Below, in pieces: positions 27,344-29,230 of a stretch of DNA of 64,000 nt (within the stretch, counting starts at the first letter, position 1; every line of letters starts with the position of its first letter). Origin of the DNA: Oscillospiraceae bacterium. Lineage in GTDB: Bacteria; Bacillota; Clostridia; Oscillospirales; Oscillospiraceae. A program made the position numbers and the translations under genes. The stretch lies in assembly GCA_009784725.1 (NCBI GenBank), contig WQXS01000002.1, positions 62,001-126,000 on the forward strand, written 5' to 3'. The notes beneath the pieces are model-generated. The model was not told the DNA's origin and did no database searches. It worked only from the letters and a program-made list of their open reading frames with translations.

Positions 27344-29230
27344 ATGGGTATTATTGACTTAATTTTCGGTACATTTTTTGGTTTCATAATGTATTTTTGT
27401 TATGTCATTACCGGTAATTTCGGCTGGGCAATAGTTGTGTTTACCGTTATTGCAAGAATTGTTTTATTCCCGATAGCCCTTATTTCACAAAAAAATTCAA
27501 TAATAATGGTAAAAATCCGGCCCGAGCTTGCTGATTTACAGGCACGCTACGAGGGTGAAACGGATACTCTTATCAAAGAGCAAAGAGCATTATACAAGAG
27601 AGAAAAATACAGCACATTAAAAGCTCTGCTTCCGCTTCTTCTTCAAATCCCAATAATAATCGGAGTAATAAGTGTTGTTAATAACCCGGCAAGACACCTT
27701 GGAGACGATGTAAACCGTTTCTTTTTCGGAGCCGATATGTTCGCTCTCCCTGAAAACTTTCTGATTCCCGCTCTTGCAATTCTTTCGACACTTCTGCTTT
27801 GCATAGTGCAAAATAAATATAATGTAATCTCAAGAGAGCAGGGTTTTATAGGAAAATGGGGAGTCTCTGTTTTCCTTGTTATTTTTACGGGATGGTTCGT
27901 ATTTGTCGTTCCCTCAGGCGTGGGACTTTACTGGACTTACAGTAATGCAGCAGGCATAATTGTTCTTGCAATATGTAACATGATATATAATCCGGCAAAG
28001 TTTATTGATTATGAAAACCGTTCGGTAAAACACCGTAAAACAGCGGATGAAAAAAAGGCAGACCGCTTAAAAAGAAAACAGGAAAAAGAGCGTGAAAAGA
28101 CCGATATGCAGCGTTTTTTCAGTGAAGAAAAAGAACTTGTTTTTTACTCGGAAGCAAGCGGTTTCTATAAATATTTCAGTTTTTTTATTGATTATATTCT
28201 TGATAACTCCGATATAACCGTGCACTATCTGACATCGGATATAAACGACCAAATTTTCAAAATAAATAAACCCCGCTTTAAATCATACTTCTGCTCGGCA
28301 CATGGAATGATAACCGCTTTTATGAAAATGGATTGCGGTATTCTTGCAATGTCAATGCCGTCTTTGGAGACTTACCAGTATAAACGTTCTATTGTTAAAA
28401 AAGATATTGAATATATTTACATCGAACACGGTATAGGCAGCTACCACCTGACACACCGAAAAGGTGCGGTTGACCATTACGATACAATTTTCTGCTACAG
28501 TAAAAATAATAATGAAGAAATACGCAATTCAGAGCAGGTTTACGGACTTCCCGAAAAAAAGCTTGTTAATGTCGGCTTCGGACTGCTTGATTTACTGATA
28601 AAAAACTACGCCGTGATGGATAAGAAAACCAAAGAGAAACCGCAGATTTTAATAGCTCCGTCCTGGCAGATAAATAATATTCTTGAATACTGCCTCCCAC
28701 CGCTGCTTGAAGACCTGTTTGCTATGGATGTTAATGTAATTATCCGCCCGCATCCGGAATTTATAAAACGTTTCCCCGGAAAAATGAAAGCTTTAAATGA
28801 AAAGTATTCTACTTATATCGGCAGCAATCTGGAAATTGAAACCGACTTTTCATCAAACGAAACAGTTTTCACATCTGATCTTATAATCACCGACTGGTCA
28901 AGCATTGCACAGGAATTTTCGTTCACAACAAAAAAACCCTCTCTATATATAAACACCCCGATGAAAGTCATGAACCCCGAATGGAAGAAAATAAACGTAG
29001 AACCAATGGAAATATGGATAAGAAATAAAATCGGCATCGCAGTTGAACCCGAAGAGCTCGGTGACACACAAAATATAGTCCGTGAGCTACTCGATAACAG
29101 CGATAAATACAAAACTGCAATCGAAGAAATAATATCCGAATACATGTACAACACCGGAAACGCAGCAGAAACCGGCGGGAAGTATATAATTGATGAAATA
29201 ATAAAAAGAAGAAATTTGCGCTCTGAGTAG
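27344..29230 (+). CDS. YidC/Oxa1 membrane insertase domain fused to CDP-glycerol glycerophosphotransferase (TagB/TagF) domain
   Basis: N-term: FGWAIVVFTVIARIVLFPIALISQKNSIIMVKIRPELADLQARYEGETDTLIKEQRALYKREKYSTLKALLPLLLQIPIIIGVI (YidC). C-term: YIYIEHGIGSYHLTHRKGAVDHYDTIFCYSKNNNEEIR, IAPSWQINNILEYC, IIRPHPEFIKRFP, LIITDWSSIAQEFSFTTKKPSLYINTPMK (TagF). ATG 27344 has an AAGGA RBS (ORF track starts at 27323). Confidence 0.9.
   Translation: MGIIDLIFGTFFGFIMYFCYVITGNFGWAIVVFTVIARIVLFPIALISQKNSIIMVKIRPELADLQARYEGETDTLIKEQRALYKREKYSTLKALLPLLLQIPIIIGVISVVNNPARHLGDDVNRFFFGADMFALPENFLIPALAILSTLLLCIVQNKYNVISREQGFIGKWGVSVFLVIFTGWFVFVVPSGVGLYWTYSNAAGIIVLAICNMIYNPAKFIDYENRSVKHRKTADEKKADRLKRKQEKEREKTDMQRFFSEEKELVFYSEASGFYKYFSFFIDYILDNSDITVHYLTSDINDQIFKINKPRFKSYFCSAHGMITAFMKMDCGILAMSMPSLETYQYKRSIVKKDIEYIYIEHGIGSYHLTHRKGAVDHYDTIFCYSKNNNEEIRNSEQVYGLPEKKLVNVGFGLLDLLIKNYAVMDKKTKEKPQILIAPSWQINNILEYCLPPLLEDLFAMDVNVIIRPHPEFIKRFPGKMKALNEKYSTYIGSNLEIETDFSSNETVFTSDLIITDWSSIAQEFSFTTKKPSLYINTPMKVMNPEWKKINVEPMEIWIRNKIGIAVEPEELGDTQNIVRELLDNSDKYKTAIEEIISEYMYNTGNAAETGGKYIIDEIIKRRNLRSE

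What the first reader, a model, noticed from the sequence alone, without database searches (positions are those of the whole stretch)
27344..29230. YidC/Oxa1 insertase fused to a TagF-type CDP-glycerol glycerophosphotransferase
One uninterrupted ORF has a convincing YidC-like membrane domain (~27344-28050), a Lys/Arg/Glu-rich linker (KHRKTADEKKADRLKRKQEKEREKTD) and a complete-looking TagB/TagF transferase domain. YidC normally inserts membrane proteins and TagF polymerises or primes teichoic acid on the inner leaflet. The fusion suggests the YidC fold is used as a membrane platform, a lipid-linked glycan handler, or a way to couple insertion of a partner protein to polymer synthesis. I know of no characterised protein with this architecture. 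Which role applies is inference.
Basis: partly seen in the sequence, partly recalled or inferred. Interest (0 to 1): 0.82.

Follow-up and report, generated by a model that had tools for sequence, protein, structure and literature searches.

The report
YidC–phosphotransferase fusion for surface decoration
A gut-type bacterium carries a real and widely conserved protein in which a membrane-insertase fold is joined to an enzyme that probably loads choline-phosphate (in relatives, a phosphonate or probably ethanolamine-phosphate) onto a lipid for display on the cell surface, an undescribed route that seems to replace the known enzyme LicD.

Summary
The fusion is real: one 628-aa ORF (27344-29230, +) with a YidC/Oxa1 domain (Pfam 1.8e-31) and a TagB/TagF-type transferase domain (5e-7). 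Of the best 120 of 1,900 database homologues, 119 have both domains; 312 loci occur in genomes of Bacillota and Actinomycetota. The AlphaFold model is confident (pLDDT 90). A separate housekeeping YidC is present.
The reading "TagF makes teichoic-acid polymer from CDP-glycerol" is not supported. The gene sits beside choline uptake and CDP-choline genes (LicC-LicA, BCCT) and the genome's only choline-binding-repeat protein; the genome has no LicD. In relatives the fusion travels with a membrane LtaS-like AP-superfamily protein (55/78 loci on the same strand, often overlapping; once fused) and with one of three headgroup pathways: choline, aminoethylphosphonate, or a cytidylyltransferase-PLP enzyme (probably CDP-ethanolamine). 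26 of 33 well-flanked loci have one; 0 of 20 housekeeping-yidC loci has any headgroup cytidylyltransferase, choline-kinase or LtaS-like gene.
Best explanation: a LicD-replacing transferase moves the phospho(no)-headgroup from CMP onto a membrane lipid, the YidC domain carries that lipid across the membrane, and the LtaS-like partner transfers the headgroup to surface glycan. The headgroup role is well supported; flipping is inferred.

The parts
27344..29230 (+). YidC/Oxa1–Glyphos_transf fusion ORF, 628 aa
27419..27973 (+). YidC/Oxa1 membrane domain (residues 26-210)
   Evidence: Pfam 60KD_IMP 1.8e-31; Foldseek to 3wo6, TMt 0.75
27455..27457 (+). Arg38, aligned with the groove Arg of E. coli YidC (ITFIVRGIMYP); Lys (49) or Arg (9) in 58 of 58 family members
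28007..28114 (+). charged linker / long helix joining the membrane domain to the transferase domain (model helix 234-260)
28130..29203 (+). cytoplasmic GT-B-type CDP-dependent phosphotransferase domain (about residues 263-620); Pfam match 372-535
28427..28429 (+). His362, invariant (58/58), TagF-type catalytic His
28745..28756 (+). RPHP motif, residues 468-471, invariant
28892..28900 (+). DWS motif, residues 517-519, invariant
29339..31111 (+). winged-helix + LicC-like cytidylyltransferase + LicA-like choline kinase in one ORF (CDP-choline supply)
31113..32063 (+). second, diverged choline-kinase-like protein
   Evidence: PF01633 1.2e-5, below cut-off
32075..32884 (+). NTP-transferase-like protein, no Pfam match (inferred from sequence appearance and position)
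32877..34355 (+). BCCT choline/betaine transporter
   Evidence: PF02028 1.1e-99
34419..35921 (-). choline-binding-repeat surface protein, the only one found in the genome
40694..42637 (-). membrane LtaS-like alkaline-phosphatase-superfamily protein, single full copy in the genome, homologous to the partner gene adjacent to the fusion in relatives

Best explanation
The protein is the central enzyme of a three-part surface-decoration system. (1) LicA-LicC makes CDP-choline; in relatives the PntC pathway makes CMP-aminoethylphosphonate, or a LicC-PLP enzyme probably makes CDP-ethanolamine. (2) The cytoplasmic GT-B domain transfers the phosphocholine (or AEP/phosphoethanolamine) headgroup from CMP to a lipid-linked acceptor at the inner leaflet, taking the place of LicD. 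(3) The fused YidC-type domain carries the loaded lipid across the membrane through its cationic hydrophilic groove. (4) Outside, the LtaS/EptA-like partner with a Thr nucleophile transfers the headgroup from the lipid to a surface glycan, where choline-binding proteins can dock. Shown: the fusion, its conservation, intact catalytic motifs, genetic linkage to headgroup-activation genes and to the partner, and absence of LicD. Inferred: donor specificity (likely, about 0.75), the partner's transfer reaction (about 0.6), lipid flipping by the YidC domain (about 0.45). The identity of the acceptor lipid is unknown.
For: Neighbourhood: CDP-choline genes, BCCT transporter and choline-binding protein within 7 kb. 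In 78 complete relatives, 30 have choline kinase/LicC (one of them also AEP-type genes), 11 others have AEP genes, and 8 have a LicC-PLP fusion; among loci with at least 9 kb on both sides 26 of 33 have such genes, against 0 of 20 housekeeping-yidC loci for LicA, LicC, Ppm, Ppd or the LtaS-like partner (one remote aminotransferase hit). Ppm, Ppd and AEP-transaminase beside L056 pass their equivalog cut-offs. No LicD in the own genome, nor in 13 of 15 examined genomes with a choline-type fusion locus. Headgroup genes switch at least 9 times on the fusion's tree, even between sister Roseburia (L039 AEP, L044 LicC-PLP), so the fusion stays while the headgroup changes. Partner: LtaS-like gene on the same strand in 55 of 78 loci, overlapping the 3' end in 31; all three domains in one 1482-aa ORF in L073; stand-alone YidC next to a GT-plus-phosphatase-like ORF inside a phosphonate operon in L090 (the remote domain only weakly). 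Partner residues D264, T301, H455, D522-H523 are conserved, and its best solved relative by profile is LtaS. Groove cation K/R in 58/58. YidC itself scrambles lipids in vitro (PMC10491306). A LicD-type transferase moves phosphocholine or phosphoethanolamine from CDP onto a glycolipid (PMC11982090).
Against: No biochemical data exist for this family. Seven of the 33 well-flanked loci lack recognised headgroup genes, and L010 has a stand-alone CTP_transf_like (TagD-type) gene near its fusion. In the window the LtaS-like gene is about 11.5 kb away on the other strand. Several genomes of the AEP type also have LicD. Flipping by the YidC domain rests on analogy and a conserved cation; no groove geometry or lipid assay was available. 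Most loci are metagenome-assembled genomes.
Confidence: 0.45

Rival explanations
1. The transferase domain is the headgroup transferase, but the YidC domain is a dedicated insertase that inserts or assembles the multi-TM LtaS-like partner next to the enzyme.
For: The partner has about seven N-terminal membrane helices and its gene often overlaps the 3' end of the fusion gene; YidC is an insertase by descent.
Against: In L073 the partner lies in the same polypeptide; in 12 loci it is upstream and in the window it is about 11.5 kb away, so co-translational handover is not a constant feature. A housekeeping YidC is present in 46 of 50 genomes.
Confidence: 0.2
2. The YidC domain is only a membrane anchor or docking platform for a headgroup transferase that acts on a lipid-linked glycan later exported by a separate flippase (as with TacF in pneumococcus).
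For: Pneumococcal phosphocholine is added in the cytoplasm and the repeat unit is then flipped by TacF (PMC13385700); peripheral TagF-like enzymes need membrane contact.
Against: The YidC domain keeps the groove cation (58/58), the coiled C1 hairpin region and many invariant polar residues, more than an anchor needs; the LtaS-like partner would have no obvious role.
Confidence: 0.2
3. It is a conventional teichoic-acid primase/polymerase using CDP-glycerol or CDP-ribitol.
For: Pfam names the domain Glyphos_transf; a TagD-like protein exists elsewhere in the genome (C13); L010 has a stand-alone CTP_transf_like gene nearby.
Against: The own TagD-like hit is 104.7 bits against a cut-off of 165.4, fused to an oxidoreductase and next to another Glyphos_transf gene. 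Fusion loci are linked to CDP-choline, CMP-AEP or LicC-PLP genes instead.
Confidence: 0.1
4. Assembly chimera or frameshift artefact.
For: None found.
Against: 1,900 homologues, 119 of the best 120 with both domains; 312 loci in independent genomes; confident full-length model.
Confidence: 0.005

Closest known systems
Lic pathway (LicA-LicB-LicC-LicD; pneumococcus, Haemophilus)
   Same: Choline uptake, choline kinase, CTP:phosphocholine cytidylyltransferase, choline-binding proteins.
   Different: No LicD in the genome; the transferase would be a GT-B/TagF-type domain fused to YidC, with an LtaS-like partner.
Pnt/phosphonoglycan clusters (Ppm, Ppd, AEP transaminase, PntC; PMC6697681)
   Same: Relatives of the fusion sit inside such clusters; CMP-AEP is the activated headgroup.
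   Different: The published clusters name LicD-like phosphotransferases and glycosyltransferases; the paper mentions neither YidC nor a glycerophosphotransferase.
YidC/Oxa1/Alb3 insertases
   Same: Membrane domain fold, groove cation, above Pfam and TIGR cut-offs.
   Different: C-terminal enzyme fused in the cytosol; distinct SQKNSI motif; separate housekeeping YidC present; Lys rather than Arg in most members.
TagB/TagF/TarL CDP-glycerol (ribitol) phosphotransferases
   Same: GT-B fold and catalytic motifs (His362, RPHP, DWS).
   Different: Linked to CDP-choline, CMP-AEP or LicC-PLP genes, not to TagD/TarIJ; weak Pfam score; YidC domain instead of an amphipathic anchor.
LtaS / EptA / PptA extracytoplasmic headgroup transferases (partner protein)
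   Same: AP-superfamily domain with Thr at the nucleophile position behind N-terminal membrane helices.
   Different: Only remote similarity (LtaS 1.5e-11 by profile); no named NCBIfam family.
Mycoplasma fermentans mf1 phosphorylcholine transferase (PMC11982090)
   Same: CDP-choline or CDP-ethanolamine headgroup moved to a membrane glycolipid.
   Different: LicD family; no YidC domain.

Membership tests
YidC/Oxa1 family | 60KD_IMP / yidC_oxa1_cterm sequence similarity above curated cut-off | tested here: met
   109.7 bits vs 35; 100 vs 84.3
YidC/Oxa1 family | five-helix membrane core with YidC fold | tested here: met
   AlphaFold pLDDT about 90; Foldseek to 3wo6, TMt 0.75, rmsd 3.2
YidC/Oxa1 family | conserved positive residue in the hydrophilic groove | tested here: met
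   K/R in 58/58 at position 38, aligned with VRxxxYP of solved YidCs
YidC/Oxa1 family | insertase activity | not testable with these tools
   needs complementation of YidC depletion
TagF/Glyphos_transf family | Pfam PF04464 above gathering score | tested here: met
   29.4 vs 22.1 bits
TagF/Glyphos_transf family | catalytic His, RPHP and D-W/Y-S motifs | tested here: met
   invariant in 58 of 58
CDP-glycerol/ribitol teichoic-acid polymerase | linked CDP-glycerol (TagD) or CDP-ribitol (TarIJ) supply | tested here: not met
   choline/AEP/LicC-PLP genes instead; own TagD-like hit below cut-off on another contig; own IspD hits are one strong IspD on another contig, the LicC ORF and two weak hits
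Lic phosphocholine system | LicA, LicC and a choline transporter | tested here: met
Lic phosphocholine system | LicD transferase | tested here: not met
   absent from the own genome, 98.4% complete
LtaS/EptA-type transferase (partner) | AP-superfamily fold, Thr nucleophile, metal ligands, N-terminal TM helices | tested here: met
LtaS/EptA-type transferase (partner) | transfer of a lipid headgroup | not testable with these tools
   needs enzyme assay

The most novel reading that the evidence does not exclude
A member of the YidC/Oxa1 superfamily has been recruited as a dedicated lipid flippase: fused to a CDP/CMP-headgroup transferase and coupled to an LtaS-like transferase, it forms a three-step machine (load, flip, transfer) that decorates bacterial surfaces with phosphocholine, phosphoethanolamine or aminoethylphosphonate without LicD.
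Probability: 0.4. Interest if true: 0.9.

Novelty: new variant of a known kind. Interest (0 to 1): 0.72.

Why it matters
It would give a second, LicD-independent route by which gut bacteria of two phyla put phosphocholine and phosphonates on their surface, and supply a candidate for the missing transfer step of phosphonoglycan biosynthesis. It would also be, to my knowledge, the first bacterial YidC/Oxa1 relative with a dedicated lipid-moving job, making the recent in-vitro finding that insertases scramble lipids testable in a natural, genetically separable setting, because the cell keeps another YidC for protein insertion.

Tried and rejected
Chimera/frameshift: rejected. Sole housekeeping YidC: rejected. 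CDP-glycerol/ribitol supply near the gene: not found. Diacylglycerol-kinase linkage as a clue to the lipid acceptor: one case only (L027), dropped. AP-like domain in the GT half of L090: only weak profile support (probability 61%, E 8e-5), so used as a hint. Literature for a YidC link to teichoic acid, phosphonate, phosphocholine or CDP-glycerol: nothing relevant found. A sample of 148 genomes of the same class gave only 2 with the fusion including the own one, so the family is patchy rather than general. One call with a made-up accession (13) and one with too many handles (34) returned errors only.

Full report
Observation. The ORF at 27344-29230 (+) encodes 628 residues without interruption. 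Pfam finds 60KD_IMP (YidC) at residues 26-210 and Glyphos_transf at 372-535, both over their curated cut-offs; NCBIfam confirms yidC_oxa1_cterm. Solved YidC structures match the N-terminal half by sequence (profile 4e-25). Of 1,900 homologues, 119 of the best 120 carry both domains, and 312 loci in the species-genome collection encode relatives, from Oscillospiraceae, Lachnospiraceae and Erysipelotrichaceae to termite-gut Coriobacteriales, Bifidobacteriaceae and Propionibacteriaceae. An evenly drawn sample of the class gave 2 of 148 genomes including the own one, so the family is widespread but patchy. The AlphaFold model has mean pLDDT 89.9, pTM 0.77. Foldseek places the first half on B. halodurans YidC and the second on GT-B enzymes, with capsule multienzymes solved with CMP among the best.

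Housekeeping YidC. The own genome has a second, unfused YidC on contig C43; by open-frame length, 46 of 50 genomes with the fusion also have an unfused copy. The fused copy is therefore an extra, specialised paralogue.

Conservation. In 58 aligned members the position aligned with the groove Arg of solved YidCs is Lys (49) or Arg (9); His362, RPHP (468-471) and DWS (517-519) are invariant. Both halves are therefore kept by selection.

Neighbourhood in the window. Directly downstream lie a winged-helix–LicC–LicA ORF, a second diverged kinase-like protein, an NTP-transferase-like protein and a BCCT transporter, then a choline-binding-repeat protein that is the only one found in the genome. LicD is absent from this 98.4% complete genome. 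The only TagD-like sequence is below cut-off, fused to an oxidoreductase on another contig beside a different Glyphos_transf gene.

Neighbourhood in relatives. With profile searches on the ORFs of 78 complete fusion loci (the window included), 30 have choline-kinase genes, mostly with LicC (one of them also has AEP-type genes), 11 others have aminoethylphosphonate genes, and 8 have a LicC-like domain fused to a PLP enzyme. At L056 the PEP mutase, phosphonopyruvate decarboxylase and AEP aminotransferase pass equivalog cut-offs. The LicC-PLP protein resembles phosphocholine cytidylyltransferase (1jyk) in its first half and a threonine-phosphate-decarboxylase-like enzyme (6oux) in its second, and these genomes have no PEP mutase; from general knowledge a phosphoserine-type decarboxylase would give phosphoethanolamine, so CDP-ethanolamine is my inference. 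AEP is the C-P isostere of phosphoethanolamine, so the three classes are chemically alike. Among loci with at least 9 kb on both sides, 26 of 33 have one of these pathways. In 20 housekeeping-yidC loci from the same genomes there were no LicA, LicC, Ppm, Ppd, LicC-PLP, GT-domain or LtaS-like hits and one remote aminotransferase hit.

Headgroup exchange. On a tree of the fusions the headgroup label needs 9 changes (least possible 2; shuffled mean 17.3, none of 200 as low), and close sisters differ, e.g. Roseburia L039 (AEP) and L044 (LicC-PLP). The fusion stays while the pathway supplying the CMP-activated headgroup is swapped. This is what one expects if the fused enzyme uses that headgroup. 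LicD is absent from 13 of 15 further genomes with choline-type loci, though 5 of 6 AEP-type genomes do have LicD, so the replacement argument is strongest for choline.

The partner. A membrane protein with a Sulfatase/AP-superfamily domain lies on the same strand in 55 of 78 loci, overlapping the fusion gene's 3' end in 31 and just upstream in 12. In L073 YidC, transferase and sulfatase domains are one 1482-residue ORF. In L090 a stand-alone YidC-like protein precedes an ORF joining the transferase to a membrane/AP-like part, followed by phosphonate genes (remote match only). The window's homologue is at 40694-42637, 40% identical over its length to a neighbour of a relative's fusion and the only full copy in the genome. 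The family keeps D264, T301, H455 and D522-H523; Thr at the nucleophile position is the pattern of LtaS/EptA phosphotransferases rather than of Cys sulfatases (general knowledge), and LtaS is the best solved relative by profile. The model has N-terminal membrane helices and an AP fold; YejM/PbgA and LtaS are among the Foldseek hits.

Mechanism. The simplest scheme that gives every conserved piece a job is: CDP-choline (or CMP-AEP, or CDP-ethanolamine) is made in the cytosol; the fused transferase passes the headgroup to a lipid-linked acceptor; the YidC-type domain brings the loaded lipid to the outer leaflet; the LtaS-like enzyme transfers the headgroup to surface glycan. Purified E. coli YidC and other insertases scramble lipids (PMC10491306), and a LicD-type transferase is known to load phosphocholine or phosphoethanolamine onto a glycolipid from CDP donors (PMC11982090). 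In pneumococcus phosphocholine is added in the cytosol and TacF flips the product (PMC13385700). The pathways for phosphonoglycans are known up to CMP-AEP (PMC6697681), and the donor for PptA-type phosphocholine transfer is described as unknown (PMC10434233). Flipping, the acceptor lipid and the partner's reaction are inferred, not shown.

Verdict. Fusion confirmed; CDP-glycerol reading not supported; headgroup-transfer role well supported by gene linkage; flippase role plausible and testable.

Noticed in passing
29339-31111 (+): LicC-LicA ORF carries an N-terminal winged-helix domain (MarR_EPS-like, NCBIfam 1.6e-5, below cut-off), an unusual regulator-enzyme fusion also suggested by the length of the homologues (about 590-600 aa).
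   Followed up: partly
31113-32884 (+): A second, diverged kinase-like plus NTP-transferase-like gene pair follows the LicC-LicA ORF; substrates unknown.
   Followed up: no
42452-42880 (-): Degenerate fragment (with a stop codon) of a second LtaS-like copy directly upstream of the intact one, a decayed tandem duplicate.
   Followed up: no
58204-58261, 61883-61968, 62308-62377: Palindromic repeats GACAGGGGGACGGTTCTTCTGTC, perfect inverted pairs of 30-34 nt, inserted inside reading frames, including a MiaB/RimO-like gene (60901-62418) and a methyltransferase-like gene, translated as ..QGDGSSVL..; resembles a mobile palindromic element.
   Followed up: partly
L090:1060-8834 (relative G025): Tandem duplicate of a stand-alone YidC-like gene plus a transferase–AP-like gene in front of phosphonate genes and an Fe-ADH, suggesting a hydroxyethylphosphonate version.
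   Followed up: partly
L092, L051, L011, L012, L055, L091, L061, L094: Some genomes carry two or three fusion paralogues; in one genome (L092, L051) one is beside choline kinase and BCCT genes and the other beside a LicC-like gene, so one cell may make several headgroups.
   Followed up: partly
own genome C13:50621-52830: Another Glyphos_transf protein (847 aa) next to a TagD-like–oxidoreductase fusion, a separate CDP-dependent system.
   Followed up: no
L020-L073 partner proteins, N-terminus: Many LtaS-like partners start with an AYIDPATTxYxIQ motif and membrane helix; the same motif joins the transferase to the AP domain in L073, and a similar one (AYIDPGTGS) starts the L090 transferase ORF.
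   Followed up: no
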